The notes beneath the pieces are model-generated. The model saw only the letters and a program-made list of their open reading frames with translations, searched no databases and was not told where the DNA came from. This document shows positions 15,942 to 37,621 of a stretch of DNA of 42,724 bases, piece by piece. The stretch comes from a virus: positions 1 to 42,724 of the IMG/VR virus record IMGVR_UViG_3300049491_000206. One strand, given 5' to 3'. Each line of letters starts with the position of its first letter. Position 1 is the stretch's first letter. The translations under genes were made by a program, and so were the position numbers.

Positions 15942-18199
15942 TAGAACCCGCTCCCGCTCAACTCTTTAGCGGTGTTAACTTGGCTGTCTGTGATCTTGTC
16001 CGCCTCGTCGATTGTCTCGCCAATCACAACGGGGACCATGATCGATCGACAGTTGAAATGGCGAGGCGGTCTTAGAGCGCTTGCCCGCTTGTCGTCGGCG
16101 AGAAATACTTTGCCGTCCATGTGCTGACAAACTTCCGTGGTTCGCGTGTCGAGGATCGCACTGTACTGCCAGCCCTCGAGGTATTCCTCAGCCTGAGCGC
16201 CCTGCACCATGCGCCCCTGGTTGTAAACGTCGATTAGGTTCGTTCGCACAATCGTTTCAAGGCGCGCAGGCTCGAGCAAAACACCCTTATCGTCGAGCGA
16301 TGTCTCGACGTATGGCCGGAAGATTTCGCGCAAACGATCCATGATCTCATCGAGCGTTTCGCCGTTCGATACGCCTTGCAACAACGCTTGTCGCACGTCA
16401 GCTAGAATCTTCTGGTCTGTGACGCCTGAAACCCAAAACGACTTAGCGCGAAGGTAAGCCAGAGCATCGTCGAGGTTCGCGTCTGGCAGTGAAGCCTCGG
16501 CAAACTTCGCTCCTGGCAACTCGCTAATAAGTGATTCGCGCCCGCGCTGCATCCCGTCTTTGAGCATCGCCGAGACGTTCGCGAGCAAGCCGTCGGTCAT
16601 TGGCAACTTGGAATAGCTTGTCGCAAACTCTAACGTCGGTGCCCAGTTCACGCGTATGTCGGCCATCACACCGGCCTTGATTGTCTCCAGCGACGACTTC
16701 ATGCGCTCAAGGTGAGCGGCGTTCATTTCGTCGAGGTCGCGCTCTATTTTAGAGAATGAAACCTTGGTCTCGTACTTCGTCAACTGACGCTTGACGCCTT
16801 CGATTTCGGAGAGCTTGGCGACGTTGTCTTTCTTCTCTGGCTCTGGCGGTTCGTCCTTTGGCTTGTTCGGGTCAAGTTGCGGCGGCGGCGCTGGCTTGTA
16901 AGGATTGTCAGGCCCTGCATCGTCGAGCGACTTGTGCGCCGTTTCCATCTCGGGAAACTTCATCTGTTTGCGGATGTGTTCTTCGTCGGTCGGCGTTGTC
17001 TGAACGACGTTTTGCCCCGTCAGCGTCCCCCAAAGCGTTATGAGGTCGGCGCGCACGTCGTCGCTCAAAGCACGAAACTTAAACTTGGGATAGGCTGTCA
17101 CGCCTGCAAAGTTGAGGTCGACCAGCGGCTTAATGATTTGTTCTTGAATGACACAGTCAGCCAGTTGGTTCCGCGCGTGCTCGACGACCAGCATGAACAC
17201 ATCGAAGTGCGTTTGCGCTCTCGCAAATGAACCAGCAGCGGCGTCGGGTGTCACGCCGAGCAAGCCGGGCATGAGAAGTCCTCGCGCGATGTCTTCGTTG
17301 AACATCTTGAAGGCGGGTATGAAAACGGTCGACACTTGGCCCGCAATTTCCGGTGTGTAAAACTCGACTGCGTCTTTGCTTTCGCCGCGCGGGAACATAC
17401 CCCATCCGCCGTTCTGCCACTGACGAACCGCGTCATAGAGTTGGTGTTGAACGTCGCTAGGAATAGCCTCTTGATCGAAGTGTACGAACACAGGCGGAAT
17501 ACCGAAGCGCTCGAGCATGGTCGCGAGCCAGTTGTAAGCCTGCGACTTCATGTTCCATGCGCGGTGCGCGCCTTCCAAATCCGAGCGCCCGTATGGATTC
17601 CCGAAGTCCCCATCCCATGTGAAAATGACGAACTTGCCGAGCGGCAAATTTTGAATCGCGGCGTTGTTGTTCGCGAGTTGGTCAATGCAAAGCAACTCGC
17701 CTTGTGGCGATACCTTGAAAACGATCTCGTGCGGGTTAACCGTCTGCAAGCACTTCAAGCCGAGCTTGCCGTCGGAGCGCTTCACATAGACCTTCTCGGT
17801 CACGCTGAAACCGTAGTCCATCGCTGTAAGCATTTGCAGCATTATGTTTTTGAAGCTGTCCTCAACGGCTTCAAGACAGTCCTCTACAAACTCGGTTACT
17901 TCCCAATCTGGCGCTTCTGTTTCCGGGCTTTCAACGTCGTAACCGCTGGCGACAACAAACTGTTTTTTGAGGCTCATGGAAGCCTTGACCATGTCGTCGC
18001 GCCGCATTTCGTCGAAGATGCGCGGCGAGCGAACTTGAACCAGCAACGACGGGTTACGAATGAACGCCTCGGTCGTGGCAACGCGCGGGTTTGCAATCAG
18101 GTTTGCGTTAAATAGTTGTTGAGGCTTGGCGGCCTGCCCCTTCTGGTCGACGCCACGAAACGCGGCAACCGCACCAAGTAATCGCTCGCGAAACGTCAT
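15941..18199 (-). CDS. Portal protein fused to MuF-like minor head domain
   Basis: This 752-residue protein begins 4 bases before the end of the large terminase frame (ATGA overlap). Residues about 60-400 match the DUF935/Mu gp29 portal plan: MRRDDMVKASMSLKKQFV, MDYGFSVTEKVY, PLGKFVIFTWDGDFGNPYGR and MLERFGIPPVFV. A Pro-rich charged linker follows (about 425-460). Residues about 650-745 are a MuF/SPP1 gp7-type domain with VRTNLIDVYNQGR, LDTRTTEVCQHMDGKVF and a PPRHFNCRS motif. In Mu these are two genes (29 and 30); here they are one. The portal is the DNA gate, and MuF proteins are packaged minor head proteins. Confidence 0.88.
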   Translation of the reverse strand: MTFRERLLGAVAAFRGVDQKGQAAKPQQLFNANLIANPRVATTEAFIRNPSLLVQVRSPRIFDEMRRDDMVKASMSLKKQFVVASGYDVESPETEAPDWEVTEFVEDCLEAVEDSFKNIMLQMLTAMDYGFSVTEKVYVKRSDGKLGLKCLQTVNPHEIVFKVSPQGELLCIDQLANNNAAIQNLPLGKFVIFTWDGDFGNPYGRSDLEGAHRAWNMKSQAYNWLATMLERFGIPPVFVHFDQEAIPSDVQHQLYDAVRQWQNGGWGMFPRGESKDAVEFYTPEIAGQVSTVFIPAFKMFNEDIARGLLMPGLLGVTPDAAAGSFARAQTHFDVFMLVVEHARNQLADCVIQEQIIKPLVDLNFAGVTAYPKFKFRALSDDVRADLITLWGTLTGQNVVQTTPTDEEHIRKQMKFPEMETAHKSLDDAGPDNPYKPAPPPQLDPNKPKDEPPEPEKKDNVAKLSEIEGVKRQLTKYETKVSFSKIERDLDEMNAAHLERMKSSLETIKAGVMADIRVNWAPTLEFATSYSKLPMTDGLLANVSAMLKDGMQRGRESLISELPGAKFAEASLPDANLDDALAYLRAKSFWVSGVTDQKILADVRQALLQGVSNGETLDEIMDRLREIFRPYVETSLDDKGVLLEPARLETIVRTNLIDVYNQGRMVQGAQAEEYLEGWQYSAILDTRTTEVCQHMDGKVFLADDKRASALRPPRHFNCRSIMVPVVIGETIDEADKITDSQVNTAKELSGSGF

Positions 18200-19629
18200 A
18201 AAGTTGGCTCCCTGATAAACGTCGACCCGCCGCCGAACGCGATTAACGCGTCCGAACTAACGACGCTCTTACCAAATAATTCAGTCCCGGCCCAAACTAA
18301 AGCGTCGAGCCTATTCGGCGACGACTGCCCGTGATAGCCGTCCGCACTCATGTTGCACAACTCTTCTTCCAGGCCGTCGAAGCGGCCGCAGTGGTGAACG
18401 CGCCCCGTGTAACCTCCCGACTTGCCGCCGTCTGATTCCTCGTAAAGCGCGGCGATAGGTTCGGCTCTGATGTGCTTTCCTCTCGACGCGGTCACAAGCT
18501 TGATGCGCGCTTGAGGATCGGCGGTCTTGATTGTGTGCCGCACCATTTCGCCGCCGTAATTTTTCTCGGCAACGATCACGTCTGCGTCCCATTTGTCGGC
18601 AGCGCTTGCAACGATCTTCGCCCACACGCTCGGGTGAGCGTTGATCGTTAAGTCCTCAAGAACGAAGGCGCGGCCCTTTGTTCCTGGCTGTTTGCCCATG
18701 ACGATTATGCCGACCGCGTTCGAGCGATCTTCTTCAGCGCCAGACGTGCCAGACGGGTCAACGCCGATTGCAATTCGGGTTATTCCTAGAGCCTTGGTAT
18801 CGGCCGGCGACACCGGATCTAGCCGTCCACGCTCTATTGTTTCCGTCGACCAAAGCGCGCCTTCGATCTCGGCAATGAACTCGCCTTCAAAGAATCGCTT
18901 TCGCGATCTGTCGGAACCGGATGCCAACTCGTCGAGGTATGATTCTGAGAGGTTTGCGGCGTTGTCGACGGGGTTAACCCGGAGCCATTTGTAGTTGTCT
19001 GGGTTGCGAAGCGGCCGAAGGTTCATCGGGTTTTTGTGCTCGACGAATTGCCGATATGACCAATGCCGATTCCCGGTCGGATTCAGGTCGTAATAGGCAC
19101 GCTGCACAAAGTCGTCGCCCTTTGCCTGCTGTGCGAGGCGCGTCAAGGCTGTCTCGATTGAGCTAAAAGGAATCTGCGAGCACTCGTTGAAATACATGGT
19201 CGCGAATTCGGTCCCGAGAATCTTGTCGACGCGCTCTTTGTCGTCGAGTCCGCCCATCCAGATTTCAGAGCCGTTTTCCTCGACGATCCAGCGCCCTAGC
19301 GACTTGTCTTCTTTGACCTTCATCTCGGGAAAACATGTCCGCAGCACCTTCGGCATGGTGTCGAGTCCGATTGACTGTCGAACCGCGTTTCCGCGTTGCC
19401 GCAAAATAACGTGGCGCGTCTCTTTGAACTTCCACGCCCGTGTGACTATGGCGCGGCAAAGTAAGAACGTTTTCCCGCTTCGAGAGCCGCCGACCAGCAT
19501 CGTGTGACGTTGTTGCCCGCCGAGAAGCGATAGCGCCTCACGCTGCTTCGGTGTCAGCTCAAACCTTATCGTCGCCGGGGAGGAGATAGACTGTTCGCGT
19601 GCCGCCTTCAATTTTGCCTGAGTGGTCAT
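18196..19629 (-). CDS. terL: Terminase large subunit
   Basis: This 477-residue protein is the packaging motor ATPase and headful or cos nuclease. The Walker A loop GGSRSGKT is at 47-54. The Walker B region reads TMYFNECSQ (144-152), with Asn where Asp is usual before the catalytic Glu149. The nuclease domain has IGVDPSG (D291), VIVAEKN (E355) and a C-terminal NRLDALVWA Asp. It overlaps the small-subunit frame by 71 bases, and no strong ribosome site precedes ATG 19629, so translation is probably coupled. An alternative start a few codons later cannot be excluded. Confidence 0.92.
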   Translation of the reverse strand: MTTQAKLKAAREQSISSPATIRFELTPKQREALSLLGGQQRHTMLVGGSRSGKTFLLCRAIVTRAWKFKETRHVILRQRGNAVRQSIGLDTMPKVLRTCFPEMKVKEDKSLGRWIVEENGSEIWMGGLDDKERVDKILGTEFATMYFNECSQIPFSSIETALTRLAQQAKGDDFVQRAYYDLNPTGNRHWSYRQFVEHKNPMNLRPLRNPDNYKWLRVNPVDNAANLSESYLDELASGSDRSRKRFFEGEFIAEIEGALWSTETIERGRLDPVSPADTKALGITRIAIGVDPSGTSGAEEDRSNAVGIIVMGKQPGTKGRAFVLEDLTINAHPSVWAKIVASAADKWDADVIVAEKNYGGEMVRHTIKTADPQARIKLVTASRGKHIRAEPIAALYEESDGGKSGGYTGRVHHCGRFDGLEEELCNMSADGYHGQSSPNRLDALVWAGTELFGKSVVSSDALIAFGGGSTFIREPTL

Positions 19630-20002
19630 GTGCGACGCGGTCTTGCCATTTTCCTAAAGCCTTACAAATGAAGATCGCCGCCGTAGTGTCTGGCGGTCTT
19701 TCTGCGCGAACAAGGTTGTTGTTTTGATCATACACGGCAGGCCGCCCTCTAGCACTCAGCAACAAATTTTGAGCCGCCTCGCTAACAACTTTCCACTTAC
19801 CCAGTTTCAACTCTGAGGCGAAATGCTTTGCGAGCGTGTCGCGTTTGATAGGCTTGCCCGAGTTGGGGTTGATTATAAATTCGCAAATGTCGTCCTGCGG
19901 CGCGCCATAGGCGTATAGAGCCTCGACCTTGCTGCGTTGCTCGTCGGTCGGCACAAATGGCAGCCTTGGATTTTTAAGTAATTTGCGGCCCTTTTCGGCC
20001 AT
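19559..20002 (-). CDS. terS: Terminase small subunit
   Basis: This 147-residue protein is the first gene of the late operon. An N-terminal helix-turn-helix region (FVPTDEQRSKVEALYAYG, then DICEFIINPNSGKPIKRDTL with a KHFASEL helix) should bind packaging-site DNA. A central helical part precedes a charged C-terminus. Position directly before the large subunit supports the call. The start at ATG 20002 has an AAGG in its leader. Confidence 0.82.
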   Translation of the reverse strand: MAEKGRKLLKNPRLPFVPTDEQRSKVEALYAYGAPQDDICEFIINPNSGKPIKRDTLAKHFASELKLGKWKVVSEAAQNLLLSARGRPAVYDQNNNLVRAERPPDTTAAIFICKALGKWQDRVAHDHSGKIEGGTRTVYLLPGDDKV

Positions 20003-20689: not shown

Positions 20690-21262
20690 CTAATTAAACG
20701 CGAAACTCACTGAAGCGATTGCCGAGTGATTCTCGCCGCTGTCATGAATATCCCCAACGCCAAGATCGGGTCCATTGAAATATCGATATCCGACTCCGAC
20801 GATCACGTTGTCTGCGACCGCCGTGTTGACACCCGCGCCAAGCTGCCAAGCGACGCCGCCGTTGCTCAACTCATATCCGGGAACGTTGTCGAGCGCGGCC
20901 GTGCGTTGCGCGTAACCGACGCCCGCGAGCGCGTAGGGATGCAAACCGCCAACCTTAACCGGAATGTCGTAGACCGCATTCGCCATCGCTGACCACGTCG
21001 AATCTGTAATCGGCAACTCGCAAAAAACGAGCTTGTTTGAGCGATACGCCAACTCTCCTTCGAGCCTAAGACCTGGAACGCTGTCAATCGTTGAGCCGAC
21101 TGCGGCGCCGATCACATATCCTGTCTCTGTCGATACGTCCTCGATGTCGACGCCGCTCCAATTGCCGCCGCCAAGTGTCGTCACGTAAAAGCCCTTCGCC
21201 GTTGCAGCGGGTGAAAGAGCGAGCACAAGAGCGAGCGCGACAAGTCCTAGAAAGTTCTTCAT
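20690..21262 (-). CDS. Outer-membrane beta-barrel protein with signal peptide
   Basis: This 190-residue protein has a clear Sec signal peptide (MKNFLGLVALALVLALSP, predicted cleavage near ATA-KG at 23). It continues with alternating strands typical of an eight-stranded OmpA/Ail/Lom-type barrel: GYVIGAAVGSTI, LRLEGELAYRS, HPYALAGVGYAQR, AWQLGAGVNTAV, VIVGVGYRYF, and a C-terminal SAIASVSFAFN ending in an aromatic-x-Asn. It has its own promoter and terminator, the arrangement of a moron gene. Phage-encoded barrels of this type alter the host surface (for example superinfection exclusion or serum resistance for Lom/Ail types). The specific role is inference. Confidence 0.83.
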   Translation of the reverse strand: MKNFLGLVALALVLALSPAATAKGFYVTTLGGGNWSGVDIEDVSTETGYVIGAAVGSTIDSVPGLRLEGELAYRSNKLVFCELPITDSTWSAMANAVYDIPVKVGGLHPYALAGVGYAQRTAALDNVPGYELSNGGVAWQLGAGVNTAVADNVIVGVGYRYFNGPDLGVGDIHDSGENHSAIASVSFAFN

Positions 21263-21300: not shown

Positions 21301-21329
21301 AATTTAGGTTGCGAGCGCTGACAGGTCAA
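21301..21329 (-). promoter_or_regulatory. Sigma70-type promoter of the outer-membrane protein gene
   Basis: On the minus strand: TTGACC (21329-21324), a 17-base spacer and TAAATT (21306-21301), 38 bases before the ATG at 21262. It overlaps the last codon of the glycosyltransferase gene. Confidence 0.65.
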
Positions 21330-22189
21330 CCAGTGGCTTTTCTGTAACGCTCGCTGACTATTTTTGGAACTGCGTGAACCCACGACACAGAATGATGCAA
21401 CCGAGCGTGGTTGCTATTCATGAGTCTAACCTTGACGCACGACGGCGCGAACATGACCGAATAAAAGCTCTTAACGTAGGTTCCGCTCGCGATGTAAATG
21501 TCCGTCAAGCCGCCAGCGTTTGACTGCGTTTGCTTTTGCTGCAACGCAACGTCTTTGATAGTCAAAAACAAATCGCCGCGAGACTGCGCCACGACCGATG
21601 TTGTCAAGTCCTCGTTAATCTTTCCGACGAACCTGAACGGGCGATCTGTCGAGCAAAAGAAACTATTCATGACCTTCCGCGACGTACTCGCCTTCGTTGC
21701 ATTGCCTCCGACGCCTCCGAGGAAGTCGCCACTCTGAGCCATGGCAACGCTGCGAAAGTTGCCAGCCTGAAAGAACGCGAGGAACGACGCGAACATGCGG
21801 TCTAGGTTTTTGATCTTCTTTACATTGACTTGTTGAATTTTCCGCTCGCCGTCCACGGTGTATGAAAAGCAAGAGTAGTCGTCGTCAAGCTGAATGAAAA
21901 ATTTACAACCGACCTTTTCGGCTAACTTCCAGCAAGCGTTGCGCGCGTAAACAACTGCACGCCTTTCCGCAAAATTGTCTGCCTCGTCGAAGGCCGCGGC
22001 CGCTTCTTTTTTCGAGAATGTTAAAACCTGTTCGCCGTACTTCTTAACGTACTCAGACGCCTGATTGTCGTCGTCCGAAATTACAATGTATATTTTCCCG
22101 GTGTAGCCTTGCGCGCGTAGCGTGTTGAAAGTGTAAACGCGATCCGCGCGGCCATAGCTCAAAATGAACGCGCAAAAATCATTCCCCAT
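21326..22189 (-). CDS. TET-associated-type glycosyltransferase (TAGT-like), predicted DNA base modifier
   Basis: This protein has 287 residues from ATG 22189, which overlaps the ParB-like stop by 11 bases; a longer frame to 22255 adds a Ser/Pro-rich stretch unlike the family. The N-terminus has the TAGT pattern: FILSYGRADRVYTFNTLRAQ, GYTGKIYIVISDDD (28-41), a DEADNFAERRAVVYARNACW helix (68-87) and FFIQLDDDY (97-105) with the acidic metal site. Later motifs are FRFVGKINEDLTT and GDLFLTI. TAGT proteins are predicted to add sugars to hydroxymethyl-pyrimidines in phage DNA, usually beside a TET/JBP oxygenase, which I did not find here. The ParB-like partner upstream is also typical of such clusters. 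Substrate is inference. Confidence 0.72.
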   Translation of the reverse strand: MGNDFCAFILSYGRADRVYTFNTLRAQGYTGKIYIVISDDDNQASEYVKKYGEQVLTFSKKEAAAAFDEADNFAERRAVVYARNACWKLAEKVGCKFFIQLDDDYSCFSYTVDGERKIQQVNVKKIKNLDRMFASFLAFFQAGNFRSVAMAQSGDFLGGVGGNATKASTSRKVMNSFFCSTDRPFRFVGKINEDLTTSVVAQSRGDLFLTIKDVALQQKQTQSNAGGLTDIYIASGTYVKSFYSVMFAPSCVKVRLMNSNHARLHHSVSWVHAVPKIVSERYRKATG

Positions 22190-22946
22190 TGGATTCGTCG
22201 ATATACTGCGCCGCGATTTCGGCTGTGAGCTTGACAAAGCCGAGTTCGATTGCACGCTTGAAGTCTATGATTACAAGAGCTTGATTTTCCATGAGGTGTT
22301 GAACCTTCGCGTCGGCGTGCGCGTAAAACTCCGCAGACTTTGCAAAGTCTACAACCGTGTGTCGTTGCGCTGCGGCTTTCAGATAAGCGGCAAGATCGAT
22401 CGGCAGTTTGGCCGCGTCGATCTCTGCAACAAGCTCGGCCGTTTTTGACGTGTCATAAAGGTCTGACACTTTCGGCCTGTTGCCCTTCACTTCGTAAACT
22501 GGCGAGGTTATTTTTCGAGTGTAAACCTGATCTTGTTCTTCGGCTGTCTGGTCGTTGAGCGCAGCAATCGAAAGGTCGTCGAATCCTATGACCGCCACGT
22601 CAAAGTCGAGGGCTTGAATCTCGCCTAGTTCGACCGAGAGTAATTTTGTATCCCACCCAGAGTTTTGCGCGATCTTGTTATCGGCGAGGCGCAACGCTTT
22701 GACCTGCACCTCGGTTAGGCCATTGAGCACGATAGCTGGAGCCTCGGACATACCGAGCGCCTTTGCGGCTTCGAGCCTGCCGTGACCGGCGATCACGCCG
22801 TAACCCGTGTCGACTAGGATTGGGTTGACGAATCCGAACTCTGAGATGCTTGCCGCGATCTGCTTGATCTGTGTGTCGCTGTGCGTTCGAGCGTTGCGTT
22901 CGTATGGTTTAAACGCGGCGATTGGAATCTGTTTTATTTGCAGCAC
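22179..22946 (-). CDS. ParB-like N-terminal-domain protein
   Basis: This 255-residue protein uses a GTG start (22946-22944) preceded by AGGAAG. Residues 1-95 are a ParB/Srx-type domain: PIAAFKPYERNARTHSD, IKQIAASISEFGFVNPILVD and the VIAGHGRLEAAKALG box (51-65), then VQVKALRLADNKIAQNSGWD. This class (as in ParB domains attached to DNA methylases) differs from chromosome-partition ParB and has been proposed to have nuclease or NTPase activity. The C-terminal half is helical, with no helix-turn-helix evident. It is followed directly by the TAGT-like gene. There is no ParA gene, so plasmid partition is unlikely. Confidence 0.8.
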   Translation of the reverse strand: MLQIKQIPIAAFKPYERNARTHSDTQIKQIAASISEFGFVNPILVDTGYGVIAGHGRLEAAKALGMSEAPAIVLNGLTEVQVKALRLADNKIAQNSGWDTKLLSVELGEIQALDFDVAVIGFDDLSIAALNDQTAEEQDQVYTRKITSPVYEVKGNRPKVSDLYDTSKTAELVAEIDAAKLPIDLAAYLKAAAQRHTVVDFAKSAEFYAHADAKVQHLMENQALVIIDFKRAIELGFVKLTAEIAAQYIDESNGE

Positions 22947-23015
22947 GGTCGCGCTTCCTGTTTGTCGGCGCGGAACGTATCGCGGCGCTGCTGGTTTGGC
23001 AACGCCGCGAGATTT

Positions 23016-23177
23016 TTACAGGCTCAAAAGAACGACACCGGCTTGGTACGCAAACGCGCCAAATATTGCCACACCGCAGAGGAACGCAGCACCCGCCGCC
23101 GACTCAAGATTGCGCTCGAAGCGTGTGCGCGCCCATCCGCTTTCCGGCCGTTTGAGTGCCCTCCCGCCGCGACTCAT
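23016..23177 (-). CDS. Small membrane protein, 53 residues
   Basis: The ATG at 23177-23175 overlaps the TGA of the gene before it (ATGA). The N-terminal half is very basic (MSRGGRALKRPESGWARTRF) and is followed by one membrane span (GAAFLCGVAIFGAFAYQAGV) at the end. A longer frame to 23255 exists but lacks a ribosome site. Function unknown; the coupling to another tiny membrane gene suggests a two-part membrane device. Confidence 0.55.
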   Translation of the reverse strand: MSRGGRALKRPESGWARTRFERNLESAAGAAFLCGVAIFGAFAYQAGVVLLSL

Positions 23178-23266
23178 ACTGTGAACCATAGCGCGTAGAG
23201 GTAAAGGCCGAGCGCCGCCGTGAGCGAGTTGAAAGCCCAGGATAGGGCAATGCATAGAATTCGCAT
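23174..23266 (-). CDS. Tiny membrane protein, 30 residues
   Basis: Read directly: ATG 23266-23264 to TGA 23176-23174. The product (MRILCIALSWAFNSLTAALG plus LYLYALWFTV) is one hydrophobic span. The leader has AAACGGGAG nine bases before the ATG, the early-gene motif. That motif is also the 3' arm of the hairpin at 23272-23300. The stop overlaps the next start (ATGA). Confidence 0.55.
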   Translation of the reverse strand: MRILCIALSWAFNSLTAALGLYLYALWFTV

Positions 23267-23271
23267 AAAAA

Positions 23272-23300
23272 AGCCTCCCGTTTGTGAGTGTCGGGAGGCT
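23272..23300 (-). terminator. Hairpin plus U run that also buries a ribosome site
   Basis: Minus-strand RNA pairs AGCCTCCCG with CGGGAGGCT (9 pairs, 11-base loop) and then has six U residues and the ATG of the 30-residue gene. It is an intrinsic terminator by shape. The same arm contains the GGGAG ribosome site, so it can act as a transcription attenuator or a translation switch between the upstream genes and the ParB/glycosyltransferase genes. Confidence 0.7.
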
Positions 23301-23312
23301 ACCAGTGAGAAG

Positions 23313-23537
23313 TTAAGATGCGGTTAAGTCGACGATCAGCGCGAATATTTTCTTCTGCCGCACTGACAACAACGCGCGAAGCTCGGCTTTGATCCCGTTG
23401 GGGATTGCGCTTTCTCCAGAGTACCAGCGCCGAACCGTGCGGTCGTTAACGTTTAGGTCTCGTGCCAGCGCGCGCTGCCACTGATCGCCGTAAAGCGCCT
23501 CGCCGGTCCCGATTAGCATGAGTGATAGAGGTTTCAT
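23313..23537 (-). CDS. Helix-turn-helix DNA-binding protein
   Basis: This 74-residue protein has a helix-turn-helix at about residues 18-45 (QWQRALARDLNVNDRTVRRW with YSGESAIPNG), the pattern of small phage regulators of Cro/C1 or YdaS type. Its ATG overlaps the TGA of the gene before it (ATGA). A hairpin terminator or attenuator follows its stop, so it ends a transcription unit and may control read-through to the ParB/TAGT genes. The target is unknown. Confidence 0.7.
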   Translation of the reverse strand: MKPLSLMLIGTGEALYGDQWQRALARDLNVNDRTVRRWYSGESAIPNGIKAELRALLSVRQKKIFALIVDLTAS

Positions 23538-23851
23538 TGATCCTTCACCTTTTTGACGATGAATTCAATTTCAACGGTCGCGCCGTTTTTGTTGTGCCAG
23601 TCGCGCGTCGCTGCCTCATGAGCTATAGACTCACAATGGTCGACGAAGTCGCTCCAAGGCAGACCCTCGGTTGATCTGAATTCGCTTTGCGCCAGACGCC
23701 AATCGGCTTGATGGTATTCCGCGTTGAATTTGAAATCATTGGAAAGCGTTTGCGCGTATGCGTCAAGCGCTTCTTCGGCTCGACGCGCGTCGTCCTCGTA
23801 TGAAAGACTCTTACTTGTTACTTTGACGCTGAAATGAATGCTGTTTGTCAT
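23534..23851 (-). CDS. Small acidic protein, unknown
   Basis: This 105-residue protein is preceded by AAACGGGA nine bases before ATG 23851. It starts with a beta strand (SIHFSVKVTSKSL), continues with helices (YEDDARRAEEALDAYAQTL), and ends with a strand (GATVEIEFIVKKVKDQ). No family is recognised. It is coupled by a 4-base overlap to the helix-turn-helix gene and may be its partner. Confidence 0.65.
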   Translation of the reverse strand: MTNSIHFSVKVTSKSLSYEDDARRAEEALDAYAQTLSNDFKFNAEYHQADWRLAQSEFRSTEGLPWSDFVDHCESIAHEAATRDWHNKNGATVEIEFIVKKVKDQ

Positions 23852-23855
23852 GTTC

Positions 23856-24119
23856 TTAAATCCCGTTTTGGTTGCTGAAATAAATAGTCACGCTGCCGTC
23901 GAGGTTTGGCTCGGAAGAATCGTAAGCCTGCCTGCCCCTTTGACCTAACGCGCCGCCGCAAACGCAGCCCTTGTGACCGCAGAGCGCCGACCAAGATCGT
24001 TTAGCCTGTCGCGGCGAAATGAGAAACGCCGCGTCGCCGTGCTCGTTGGTGAACGTTGCGCGCTTCGCCTTTAACACTCGCTGCGTTTTGTGAAAGTCGT
24101 TTGTGATTACGATGTCCAT
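23856..24119 (-). CDS. Small protein with Cys/His cluster, unknown
   Basis: This protein has 87 residues from ATG 24119 (MDIVITNDFHKTQ), which has AAGGGC upstream. A longer reading from TTG 24230 overlaps the HNH gene and is less likely. The centre has SWSALCGHKGCVCGGALGQR, a Cys-His-Cys-Cys group that could bind a metal, between a strand-rich N-terminus and a YFSNQ end. No family is recognised. Confidence 0.6.
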   Translation of the reverse strand: MDIVITNDFHKTQRVLKAKRATFTNEHGDAAFLISPRQAKRSWSALCGHKGCVCGGALGQRGRQAYDSSEPNLDGSVTIYFSNQNGI

Positions 24120-24198
24120 TTTGAAGCCCTTTTGACTTTCGCGTGGGACCATTCCCGCCGCGTCTGTGCCTAGTATGTAGGGCAGCGCTCTGGCGCGG

Positions 24199-24492
24199 TC
24201 AAGCCCCTGTTCGCCTTTTCTTTCTGACAAAACAAAAAAGGCCGCGAGCCTGCAGGATTGCCGCGTATTTGTGCGACTTTAGGAATTCGTTAACACTTAG
24301 ATCGGCCTTGAATTTGTTGCATGCGCGACAAGCTGCGACAATGTTTGATCGGCGGTAAAACTTGCCGCCCCGACTCAACGCAACGACGTGATCGGTTGTG
24401 GCGTCGCCTGGAGGCATGATCCAATTGCAGTAGTAGCAGCGCCCGCCTTGAGCCTCGACCGCCTTGGTGCGTTGCGGCTTTAGGTTAGACAC
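24199..24492 (-). CDS. HNH endonuclease
   Basis: This 97-residue protein has the HNH core: CYYC and CRAC zinc-ligand pairs (residues about 19-22 and 55-58), ATTDHVVALSRGG with the catalytic His, and NIVAACRACNKFKAD. It lies between the methyltransferase-like gene and a small unknown gene in the early minus operon. Phage HNH proteins nick DNA for packaging or act as homing or anti-host nucleases. Distance from the terminase genes makes a packaging role less certain. Confidence 0.83.
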   Translation of the reverse strand: MSNLKPQRTKAVEAQGGRCYYCNWIMPPGDATTDHVVALSRGGKFYRRSNIVAACRACNKFKADLSVNEFLKSHKYAAILQARGLFCFVRKKRRTGA

Positions 24493-24516
24493 GTCGCGCG
24501 CTCAAATCTAAACCTC

Positions 24517-25086
24517 CTAAGCCGCTATTGCTGCGGCGATTCCCCACTGCTCAGCCATTGCTGCGGCAATACCTTCCAGGGTTCGACTTCTCTCTTTCCA
24601 ACGGTTAGGGCTAGGGGTCATTTTGTGAACCCGCGCCTCACGCCCGCCAACGATATTTGTGGGCATCAGTTTTGGAAGATTCTTAAGCCAGAGGCATGTG
24701 GCCTTAGTTTCCCCGTGGCCAAACATCCAAGGTTGAACAATCTGGTTTGGCTTTCTGATTTTAGAACTGATTACGCTAATGGGGTTTTCCAAGGCAATGC
24801 GATAGATGGGGGCGTCTAACAGCGCCTTTACAAACTTAAGAGCGTCTGATTGCTCCTGTGTCTTGTCTTTGAACCACCGCGCACCGGACACCGCCAGATG
24901 CGTGCACGGTGGGTGGGCGATCATCAAGTCCCACCCGTCACCAAGATGCATCGTCACATCATCCATAATGTGAAAATTGCTCTCATCTTCTGACGGCAGC
25001 AAATCGCAAGACCAAGCGTCTTGCCCCCTATCGCGGAAGGCTCGACGGACCACGCCTGAAAACTCGCAAGCAATAAGCACCCTCAC
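24517..25086 (-). CDS. Cytosine-C5 methyltransferase-like protein
   Basis: This 189-residue protein resembles short phage DNA cytosine methylases. It begins MRVLIACEFSGVVRRAFRDR (SAM-binding motif I type), then has a WSCDLLPSE acidic turn, DLMIAHPPCTHLAVSG with the PPC catalytic Cys (motif IV), and ALENPISV (motif VI ENP). It is much shorter than bacterial C5 methylases and lacks an obvious target-recognition domain, so it may be a single-domain enzyme, may need a partner, or may have a changed reaction. It starts at the base next to the stop of the pentapeptide gene. It belongs to the same transcription direction as the ParB/TAGT pair. Confidence 0.72.
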   Translation of the reverse strand: MRVLIACEFSGVVRRAFRDRGQDAWSCDLLPSEDESNFHIMDDVTMHLGDGWDLMIAHPPCTHLAVSGARWFKDKTQEQSDALKFVKALLDAPIYRIALENPISVISSKIRKPNQIVQPWMFGHGETKATCLWLKNLPKLMPTNIVGGREARVHKMTPSPNRWKERSRTLEGIAAAMAEQWGIAAAIAA

Positions 25087-25632
25087 CTACACCTCCCAAG
25101 CCGCTATTGCTGCGGTTATTACCGCAACGAAATCCGTGTCGCAGATGTTCACGGGGCAGGATCGTTTCATCGCCTCCGTAAATCGCGCTTCGATAAAATC
25201 CAGTATTGCCAACGTCTCCGCGCCCTTTGTTGTGTTTGGGTATGATTTGTCGACGTGCGCTCGATACTCAGCAACCGTCATAAATCGGCAGCCAGCTTTA
25301 ACGTAGTCGCCTCTGTCGGTTCGCCAGCCAAAAAACTCGTAACTATCCTCAATGCGTGTCGCGCGGGCGATTAGCCCTACTGCTTTCTTACCGCCTCCGA
25401 GGTTCGCGCCTCCGAGGTATGCGCCTCCGAGGTATGCGCCTTCGAGGTTTGCGCCTTCGAGGTTTGCGCCTCCGAGGTTTGCGCCTTCGAGGTATGCGCC
25501 TCCGAGGTATGCGCCTTCGAGGTTTGCGCCTCCGAGGTTTGCGCCTCCGAGGCTTGCGCGAGCACCGCCCTTTTCACCACGCGCCCATTTCTCGTGCGCG
25601 GCTAAAACGACTTTGATTTCGTCTGGTGTCAT
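25087..25632 (-). CDS. Pentapeptide-repeat protein
   Basis: This 181-residue protein carries eleven tandem A(N/Y/S)L(G/E)G pentapeptides (residues about 25-80), forming a short right-handed beta helix, then a C-terminal domain with a [15 protein letters not shown] block and a helical end. The C-terminal domain is common in phage proteins with such repeats. Pentapeptide helices can mimic DNA (gyrase protection by Qnr/MfpA), but many have no known role. Its start overlaps the stop of the gene before it by 4 bases. Confidence 0.75.
25392..25556. repeat. Eleven tandem 15-bp repeats inside the pentapeptide gene
   Basis: Unit GCGCCTCCGAGGTTT with variants (TTCGAGG, GGTAT). It encodes the pentapeptides on the minus strand. 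The near identity of units suggests recent slippage growth. Confidence 0.9.
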
Positions 25633-36638: not shown

Positions 36639-37002
36639 CGATCTCCTGAATCGCGTGTTCAGCTTCAGCCCTTTGCCGTTGTGCGGTTCGGCTATTCGGA
36701 CTGCGTTTCAACTCGTCGTTGGCTTCGTTGATCTTTGCCTGCCAGTAGTCACGCAGCAAGGCGTTTTGGTCCTTTTGCATTCTGCGTTGCGCGGCGTCGA
36801 TCTGTTCTAGCCTTTGCAGAATGGCTTCGTCGCGGGTTAAGTTTTCATTTTTCAGCCGACTAATTTCGTCAGCAGACACCCACGGGATCAAATTTATTCC
36901 GAGAGCCGAAGCGCCGCCAAGGATTGACGTCACAGAAATTGCCGCCGCCGCGACGGTCGAAATGACGGGATTCTCTTTAACCGTTTGCGCTGTGATTCGC
37001 AT
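36610..37002 (-). CDS. Membrane-anchored coiled-coil protein
   Basis: This protein has 130 residues from ATG 37002 (MRITAQTVKENPVIS), with GAAGG upstream; an Arg-rich extension to 37083 shadows the PAS gene. It has one membrane segment (VISTVAAAAISVTSILGGAS) and then a long charged coiled coil (DEISRLKNENLTRDEAILQR). A spanin-like or holin-partner role is possible. It overlaps the PAS gene by 26 bases. Confidence 0.6.
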   Translation of the reverse strand: MRITAQTVKENPVISTVAAAAISVTSILGGASALGINLIPWVSADEISRLKNENLTRDEAILQRLEQIDAAQRRMQKDQNALLRDYWQAKINEANDELKRSPNSRTAQRQRAEAEHAIQEIDANDKAQSK

Positions 37003-37621
37003 TGACTGGCTCGACCTTCGTATATCGCCCAATGTAACTGACGACGCGGCCCGCCTCGTTTGTGATCGGTGTCGCGCTCGCATCGACGTTATATTTCAGG
37101 CCGCCTCGACTTGTCACGACATAAGAAAGCTCGAACGTTCGCGACTTCGCAATGGCGTCCTGCCACTCAACCCAAACGCGCTGACGGTCTGGCTTGTCAA
37201 TTATGTTTTCCCAGCCCGCGCCTGTCATGTCCTCAAGGCTTCGATTGACCAGCTTCGAAAGCGCGCTGTTGATGCGTATGCATTGCCCGCGCTCGTCGCT
37301 CTCCCACATTGGCGTCGGCAACGTCTCTGCAAAAGTCCATTGCCACGCTTTGACCTTGCCTAGCGCCTCGCCGAGTTGAGACACCTTGACAGCGGTCGCG
37401 GCGGTCTGTGCCTGCGTTTGCTTGAGAATGTCAAAGATCGACGAGCCGCCGTTAGGCTTGAATTGCGTTTCGATGCGCTCGACAGCCTCGAATAAAGCCT
37501 CGACGCGCTTCTTTGAGGCTAACAGCATCCTAACAACTCCCGCGCCGCCTGCGGCGATAACTCCAATCAATGTGATTACGTCGGCGAATTTTCCCGCCTC
37601 TTCAAAAAGCCAAACCAGCAT
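36977..37621 (-). CDS. Membrane protein with a PAS domain
   Basis: This 214-residue protein has an N-terminal span (ADVITLIGVIAAGGAGVVRM, 13-32), a coiled-coil linker (KKRVEALFEAVERIETQF), then a PAS fold at about 95-203: FAETLPTPMWESDERGQCI, RINSALSKLVNRSLEDMTG, GWENIIDKPDRQRVWVEWQD, FELSYVVTSRGG, and ASATPITNEAGRVVSYIGRY, matching the PAS/PAC core. It has no kinase or cyclase output domain. It sits between the endolysin and other small lysis-region membrane genes. A membrane-anchored PAS domain could sense a ligand, oxygen or redox state and time lysis. That role is inference. Confidence 0.75.
   Translation of the reverse strand: MLVWLFEEAGKFADVITLIGVIAAGGAGVVRMLLASKKRVEALFEAVERIETQFKPNGGSSIFDILKQTQAQTAATAVKVSQLGEALGKVKAWQWTFAETLPTPMWESDERGQCIRINSALSKLVNRSLEDMTGAGWENIIDKPDRQRVWVEWQDAIAKSRTFELSYVVTSRGGLKYNVDASATPITNEAGRVVSYIGRYTKVEPVNANHSANG

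What the first reader, a model, noticed from the sequence alone, without database searches (positions are those of the whole stretch)
21326..25086. Candidate DNA hypermodification set without a TET/JBP oxygenase
A TAGT-like glycosyltransferase (LDDDY at residues 101-105), a ParB-like protein (GHGR box) and a short C5-methyltransferase-like protein (PPC and ENP motifs) lie in one early transcription direction. Published comparative genomics of DNA base hypermodification placed TAGT and ParB-like proteins beside TET/JBP oxygenases and methylases. Here no oxygenase with an HxD...H pattern is evident among the proteins I read, and there is no dCMP hydroxymethylase. Either the substrate hydroxyl comes from another source, or the methylase-like enzyme does unusual chemistry, or the oxygenase has been lost. 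If functional, this would be a reduced hypermodification pathway.
Basis: partly seen in the sequence, partly recalled or inferred. Interest (0 to 1): 0.8.

Follow-up and report, generated by a model that had tools for sequence, protein, structure and literature searches.

The report
TET-free phage glycosyltransferase–ParB partner pair
Many unrelated phages, and prophages in about one in six complete E. coli genomes, carry the same two overlapping genes, a sugar-transferring enzyme and a fixed partner protein, without the oxygenase such enzymes are thought to need, so they probably attach sugars to phage DNA by a route nobody has described.

Summary
The glycosyltransferase and the ParB-like gene are real. 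21326-22189(-) is a Pfam TAGT and 22179-22946(-) is ParB_N plus a C-terminal domain ("CTD") that no Pfam model recognises. The short methyltransferase (24517-25086) is a common phage gene unrelated to the pair: 0 of about 86 TAGT loci carry it and 0 of 80 of its own loci carry TAGT. The absence of an oxygenase is real, but it is not a loss. It defines a separate, widespread class. In 111 of 117 TAGT loci the CTD gene lies directly upstream (the other six are contig edges). In 79 of 80 CTD loci TAGT follows. None of 43 CTD-TAGT records has TET (3/3 positive controls found). TET-linked TAGTs (29/29) never have the CTD. ParB_N is shared by both classes. CTD co-evolves with TAGT (r=0.47) and ParB_N hardly does (r=0.14). 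Six unrelated phages share only these two proteins. 887 of 5,426 complete E. coli genomes hold the pair in Rac-type prophages; K-12 YnaK is its truncated remnant. Best explanation: a self-contained, oxygenase-independent DNA-glycosylating pair that usually sits beside terminase. The DNA substrate and the acceptor group are inferred, not shown.

The parts
21326..22189 (-). TAGT-family glycosyltransferase (PF20691), 287 aa from ATG at 22189 (the ORF may extend to 22255)
   Evidence: Pfam E=1.2e-35, phrog_842 E=1.1e-71; AF2 pTM 0.86, GT-A fold neighbours
21878..21886 (-). DDD metal-binding motif of the glycosyltransferase (residues 102-104 in LDDDY)
   Evidence: invariant in 41 of 41 relatives
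22179..22946 (-). ParB-like partner protein, 255 aa; its 3' end overlaps the TAGT start by 11 nt
   Evidence: PF02195 E=7e-9; Foldseek to ParB-CDP E=1.6e-8; overlap
22536..22946 (-). ParB_N/Srx-type N-terminal domain of the partner (swappable)
   Evidence: weak co-variation with TAGT, r=0.14
22776..22787 (-). GHGR box (P-motif of the ParB NTP-binding fold)
   Evidence: sequence; alignment
22224..22535 (-). 'CTD': helical domain of about 105 aa without a Pfam model, obligate TAGT partner
19559..20002 (-). terminase small subunit (context, downstream of the pair)
   Evidence: phrog_309 E=1.6e-10
18196..19629 (-). terminase large subunit (context)
   Evidence: PF03237 E=5.7e-16, PF17289 E=6.5e-10
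24517..25086 (-). short methyltransferase-like protein (phrog_757); NOT part of the module
   Evidence: phrog_757 E=6e-70; 0 of 80 of its loci have TAGT, CTD or TET

Best explanation
The finding is a two-gene, translationally overlapping module: a ParB_N-CTD partner protein and a TAGT-family GT-A glycosyltransferase. It most likely glycosylates the phage's own DNA without a TET/JBP oxygenase or a hydroxymethylated-nucleotide pathway. Proposed mechanism: TAGT binds a metal ion and a nucleotide-sugar through its DDD motif; the CTD is its obligate subunit, docking it and perhaps shaping or providing the acceptor; the optional ParB_N domain loads or recruits the complex on DNA in an NTP-dependent way, as in its fusions to DNA methyltransferases. 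The product would protect DNA from host nucleases around replication and packaging. Shown: the gene families, the strict pairing, mutual exclusion with TET, co-evolution, broad host range and natural joint deletions. Inferred: physical complex, DNA as substrate, the donor sugar, the acceptor group and the protective role.
For: TAGT identity and fold. CTD directly upstream of TAGT in 111 of 117 loci, the other six cut at contig edges. From the CTD side, 79 of 80 loci have TAGT, and all 28 phage records with the CTD also carry TAGT. No TET in 43 CTD-TAGT records with a dedicated profile, 3/3 controls positive. TET-type TAGT loci 29/29 have TET and 0 have CTD; of 78 TET loci 0 have CTD or CTD-type TAGT. 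The only proteins shared by phages of Lactobacillus (two), Haloarcula, Nocardia, E. coli and this window are the pair. Mantel r: CTD-TAGT 0.47, NTD-TAGT 0.14. DNA link: the same ParB_N domain is fused to or adjacent to N6/N4 and C5 methyltransferases, TET, and a DpdA-like protein; published ParBc genes lie beside CmoX, a proven DNA-modifying enzyme (PMC12783734); in Vibrio phage pv27 CTD-TAGT sits among replication genes; T6 TAGT modifies DNA (PMC13216743).
Against: No biochemical evidence for any member of this class. No acceptor hydroxyl on DNA is apparent, and glycosylation of a canonical base would be unprecedented to my knowledge. GT-A structural neighbours include protein glycosyltransferases (weak, TM 0.3-0.5). 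The proteome intersection used phmmer, and even terminases were too divergent to be detected across all six phages, so a fast-evolving third component could be missed. Sequence relation of CTD-type to TET-type TAGT is itself distant (hhalign E=0.011).
Confidence: 0.55

Rival explanations
1. The pair glycosylates a protein or another non-DNA molecule (for example a packaging or capsid protein, a host factor, or the CTD itself) near the time of packaging.
For: The module lies directly upstream of terminase in most loci; GT-A neighbours include peptide glycosyltransferases; no DNA hydroxyl source is encoded.
Against: Adjacent terminases and capsid genes belong to unrelated families and no capsid or terminase family is shared by all carriers; in Vibrio phage pv27 the pair sits among replication genes, not beside terminase; sister ParB_N genes pair with DNA-modifying enzymes.
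Confidence: 0.22
2. A classical hydroxyl-dependent route, with the hydroxyl installed by an unrecognised host or phage enzyme, after which TAGT adds the sugar.
For: T-even and TET-linked TAGTs use hydroxymethylpyrimidine-derived acceptors (PMC13216743, PMC13390438).
Against: No TET (0 of 43 records), no PF00303 (0 of 29 carriers apart from one large Vibrio phage) and no third protein common to six phages. A host-supplied hydroxyl would have to exist in Firmicutes, Actinobacteria, Proteobacteria and haloarchaea alike.
Confidence: 0.15
3. One reading: a reduced three-gene TET pathway (methyltransferase + TAGT + ParB) that lost its oxygenase.
For: All three genes are in the window.
Against: The methyltransferase never accompanies TAGT elsewhere. 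The TET-free form is the conserved state of a whole class with its own partner domain.
Confidence: 0.03
4. Vestigial, inactive genes.
For: Joint deletions exist in Lactobacillus phages LL-Ku and Ld25A and in the E. coli K-12 Rac prophage, so the module is dispensable.
Against: In the window and most relatives both frames are intact, about 40 TAGT positions are invariant including DDD, and the overlap and order are kept across phyla.
Confidence: 0.05

Closest known systems
TET/JBP-ParB-TAGT hypermodification cassettes of phages (seen here in L095/L096/L108; described by Iyer 2013 and Burke 2021, which I could not read here)
   Same: ParB_N gene directly upstream of a TAGT-family glycosyltransferase; that ParB_N is 55% identical to the window's
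   Different: They carry TET and lack the CTD; their TAGT is a very distant clade (no mutual hits between the two TAGT profiles at E<=1e-3)
T-even beta-glucosyl-HMC-alpha-glucosyltransferase (T6 ggt; assigned to PF20691 in PMC13216743)
   Same: TAGT family and GT-A fold per PMC13216743; modifies phage DNA
   Different: Acts on glucosyl-hmC made with dCMP hydroxymethylase and alpha-GT; no ParB or CTD neighbour; T6 ggt gives no hit to the CTD-type profile
Solitary TAGT homologues (288 of 753 phage genomes in PMC13216743)
   Same: TAGT without alpha- or beta-GT, function stated there as undefined
   Different: The passages read there do not describe a partner domain, TET exclusion or ParB coupling; this work supplies them
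ParB_N-DNA methyltransferase fusions and the CmoX-ParBc cassettes
   Same: Same ParB_N domain, in several cases near terminase, paired with a DNA-modifying enzyme
   Different: Enzyme is a methyl- or carboxymethyltransferase and the CTD is absent
E. coli Rac prophage ynaK (K-12)
   Same: K-12 YnaK is residues 1-86 (97.7% identical) of the intact 263-aa partner
   Different: K-12 has lost the rest of the partner and the TAGT gene

Membership tests
TAGT (PF20691) | Score above the Pfam gathering cut-off | tested here: met
   123.7 bits against 27.5
TAGT (PF20691) | GT-A fold with DXD-type metal motif | tested here: met
   AF2 pTM 0.86 and GT-A Foldseek hits; DDD invariant
TAGT (PF20691) | Sugar transfer to a hydroxylated base in DNA | not testable with these tools
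   needs biochemistry
TET/JBP hypermodification cassette | TET/JBP oxygenase encoded in the genome | tested here: not met
   0 in the window and in 43 CTD-TAGT records; controls positive
TET/JBP hypermodification cassette | TET-type TAGT clade, without CTD | tested here: not met
   no cross-hits between the two TAGT profiles; CTD present
T-even type hydroxymethylcytosine pathway | dCMP hydroxymethylase (PF00303 family) | tested here: not met
   absent in the window; T6 control positive
ParB/Srx fold | ParB_N domain and ParB-like structure | tested here: met
Canonical ParB partition protein | Score above the TIGR00180 cut-off | tested here: not met
   40.1 bits against 58.45
Canonical ParB partition protein | Neighbouring parA | not tested
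   no ParA-specific search was run
C5-cytosine DNA methyltransferase (24517-25086) | PF00145 or profile similarity to C5 methyltransferases | tested here: inconclusive
   no Pfam hit; hhalign E=0.12 with shallow profiles; PPC and ENP motifs invariant; phrog_757 hit
CTD-TAGT module (defined here) | CTD encoded directly upstream of and overlapping TAGT | tested here: met
   11-nt overlap in the window

The most novel reading that the evidence does not exclude
The CTD-TAGT pair is by itself sufficient to put a sugar on unmodified DNA, either directly on a canonical base or after the CTD generates the acceptor. That would be a new DNA-modification chemistry, spread across phages of bacteria and archaea and sitting unnoticed in about 16% of complete E. 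coli genomes.
Probability: 0.35. Interest if true: 0.92.

Novelty: new variant of a known kind. Interest (0 to 1): 0.68.

Why it matters
A 2026 study counts 288 phage genomes with solitary TAGT glycosyltransferases and says the function of TAGTs is yet to be defined (PMC13216743). This work gives such enzymes a definite genetic partner, a rule (CTD or TET, never both), a large host range, and convenient models: the E. coli Rac-type prophage pair, with K-12 YnaK as its remnant, and intact versus deleted Lactobacillus phages. If the pair modifies DNA without an oxygenase, it would be a new route to glycosylated DNA, a new anti-restriction trait and a possible tool for labelling DNA.

Tried and rejected
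C5-methyltransferase as a member: rejected on distribution. Identity of that protein with C5 methyltransferases: hhalign with shallow profiles inconclusive, PDB profile search empty. CTD identification: no Pfam family (best scattered hits E>=1e-4) and no convincing PDB sequence match (weak hits are repeat or coiled proteins); Foldseek of the whole partner is dominated by the ParB domain. Lipopolysaccharide or serotype-conversion glycosyltransferase: rejected because the enzyme has no membrane-conversion gene neighbours, is tied to a ParB/CTD partner and occurs in a haloarchaeal virus. Queuine tRNA-ribosyltransferase beside ParB in cyanophage MED4-184: an apparent misannotation, the protein is Tet_JBP-like. 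Plasmids: no relative of TAGT. Rfam and tRNA scans of the window: nothing. Papers on HHTV-2 (read) and searches for Lactobacillus phages gave no report of DNA modification. Iyer 2013 is not held; Burke 2021 could not be read here either. A family-level genome search centred on a prophage host failed for lack of a handle.
Full report
WHAT IS THERE. The window is a 42,724-bp virus record of a tailed phage: terminase, portal and head maturation protease, and a primosomal-type protein and RuvC-like resolvase all read on the minus strand. At 21326-22189(-) lies a TAGT-family glycosyltransferase (PF20691, 123.7 bits against a cut-off of 27.5; phrog_842 E=1e-71) and at 22179-22946(-), overlapping its start by 11 nt, a ParB_N protein. 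No Tet_JBP, PF00303 or PF00145 match exists in the window, nor a match to a dedicated phage-TET profile.

THE METHYLTRANSFERASE IS NOT PART OF IT. The 189-aa protein at 24517-25086 belongs to phrog_757 (E=6e-70). Similar proteins occur in 627 phage records and in at least 599 viral-contig stretches. None of the TAGT loci first examined carries it, and none of 80 loci fetched with it carries TAGT, CTD or TET. Its kinship to true C5 methyltransferases could not be proven with shallow profiles, although PPC and ENP are invariant.

A CONSERVED PAIR. TAGT relatives were collected from viral contigs (80 loci), isolate phages (36 records) and bacterial genomes (28 loci, prophage-like, from Proteobacteria, Bacteroidota, Firmicutes, Spirochaetes, Verrucomicrobia, Actinobacteria and others). 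In 111 of 117 loci examined the gene directly upstream is the ParB-like partner; the remaining six are cut by a contig end. The two frames usually overlap by 4-68 nt. The partner has two parts. The N-terminal ParB_N domain varies (mean identity 34%) and is missing in 13 loci. The C-terminal domain of about 105 aa (window residues 138-241, here 'CTD') is always present and conserved (mean identity 49%; invariant Y142, P149, Y151, R195, Y208, E220, D228, G236). No Pfam family covers the CTD and the PDB profile search gave no convincing relative. AlphaFold2 shows it as a confident helical domain. In Vibrio phage pv27 and in L012 and L126, for example, the CTD stands alone upstream of TAGT. Conversely, in the 28 isolate-phage records with the CTD, TAGT is always present, and in 79 of 80 viral-contig loci fetched with the CTD, TAGT follows; the exception, L183, has no TAGT within the 3 kb downstream.

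CTD OR TET, NEVER BOTH. ParB_N searches uncovered the classical arrangement ParB-TAGT-Tet_JBP (L095/L096/L108). Using those proteins as queries, 29 of 29 TET-type TAGT loci carry TET and none the CTD, and 78 TET loci have no CTD and no CTD-type TAGT; the 188 CTD-type loci have no TET. Over whole records a 13-sequence TET profile finds none in 43 CTD-TAGT records (including L183) and finds all three positive controls at E about 1e-118 to 1e-131. The two TAGT classes are very distant: neither profile hits the other at E<=1e-3, and hhalign aligns only the N-terminal Rossmann part and the DD(D/N) motif (E=0.011).

CO-EVOLUTION AND MINIMAL SET. Over 97 non-redundant loci, pairwise identities of CTD and TAGT correlate (r=0.47, 0 of 999 permutations), whereas ParB_N correlates weakly with TAGT (r=0.14) and with its own CTD (r=0.19). 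The CTD therefore travels with TAGT, while ParB_N is exchangeable. Comparing the proteome of Lactobacillus phage c5 with those of phi jlb1, HHTV-2 (haloarchaeal), Nocardia phage NTR1, E. coli phage 683R6 and this window, the only two proteins found in all six are the partner and TAGT. Limit: phmmer at E<0.01 also fails to link the terminases of all six, so a fast-evolving third component is not excluded.

CONTEXT AND LIKELY SUBSTRATE. A terminase gene starts within 3.5 kb downstream in 82 of 90 loci by iterated phmmer (not checked by hand; 42 of 64 with the first panel). In Vibrio phage pv27 the pair instead lies among clamp, SSB, primase and helicase genes. The same ParB_N domain is elsewhere fused to N6/N4 DNA methyltransferases or sits beside a C5 methyltransferase, TET, a DpdA-like protein or a radical-SAM protein. 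ParBc genes are also reported beside CmoX, a biochemically proven DNA carboxymethyltransferase, with unknown role (PMC12783734), and the fold binds CTP, ATP or GTP (PMC12704722). These facts make DNA the most likely substrate. They are contextual, not biochemical.

NATURAL KNOCK-OUTS AND A MODEL ORGANISM. In the Lactobacillus genus Cequinquevirus, c5 is intact, while LL-Ku and Ld25A have different deletions running from the ParB gene into TAGT, removing the CTD each time. In E. coli, 887 of 5,426 complete genomes contain at least 80% of the pair's DNA, mostly at 95% identity or more, in Rac-type prophages between trkG and terminase. K-12 YnaK is the first 86 residues of the partner and its TAGT is gone. 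In strain CFSAN061771 RefSeq marks the full-length ynaK as incomplete although the 263-codon frame is open, and it names the TAGT 'GREB1-related protein'.

MECHANISM. TAGT folds as a GT-A enzyme (pTM 0.86; Foldseek GT-A hits) with an invariant DDD motif. I propose a CTD-TAGT complex that transfers a sugar from a nucleotide-sugar to DNA, with ParB_N as an NTP-dependent DNA-loading element. The acceptor is the open point. If the pair suffices, it must be something every host's DNA offers, or the CTD must create it. Tandem TAGT copies in five loci hint at sequential sugar addition in some phages (inference).

NOVELTY. TAGTs and their ParB neighbourhood are known, and solitary TAGTs were counted but left unexplained (PMC13216743). 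The CTD, the strict pairing, the exclusion of TET, the co-evolution pattern, the Rac/YnaK link and the joint natural deletions were not described in the papers I could read. Iyer 2013 and Burke 2021 could not be read here, so partial overlap with them is possible.

Noticed in passing
L419:3501-3764 (E. coli K-12 W3110); L418:4001-4792: K-12 YnaK is a truncated remnant (86 of 263 residues) of the TAGT partner; RefSeq labels the intact ynaK of strain CFSAN061771 'incomplete'.
   Followed up: yes
L093:5274-6059 (cyanophage MED4-184) and phrog_6059: Tet_JBP-like oxygenases appear to be misannotated as 'queuine tRNA-ribosyltransferase' in PHROGs-based annotation.
   Followed up: partly
L167:4134-6108: The ParB_N domain next to TAGT is duplicated; the second copy has another C-terminus and precedes a radical-SAM protein, a possible further DNA-modifying partner.
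   Followed up: partly
L100:663-1616, L105:644-1597, L106:675-1628, L109:421-1374: A 317-aa protein (the L100 copy has no Pfam, PHROGs or NCBIfam hit) directly follows ParB_N upstream of a gpA-type terminase: candidate new DNA-modifying enzyme.
   Followed up: no
window 23313-23851 (-): Aca2/YdiL-like HTH gene (Pfam E=1.3e-5) overlapping an upstream 105-aa gene without any match; arrangement like an anti-CRISPR gene with its regulator.
   Followed up: no
window 20690-21262 (-): Outer-membrane beta-barrel protein gene inserted between TAGT and the terminase small subunit; not seen in the related loci searched.
   Followed up: partly
L017, L070, L124, L128, L141: Tandem or split second TAGT copy next to the first.
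   Followed up: no
L183:2482-3351: The one CTD protein found without TAGT downstream.
   Followed up: partly
window 24199-24492 (-): Small HNH protein with weak similarity to the HNH region of IscB/Cas9d models (E about 5e-6, below cut-offs).
   Followed up: no
window 25087-25632 (-): Protein with a long tandem run of pentapeptide-type repeats ([11 protein letters not shown]...).
   Followed up: no
window 36977-37621 (-): PAS-domain protein in the phage genome (Pfam E=9e-9).
   Followed up: no
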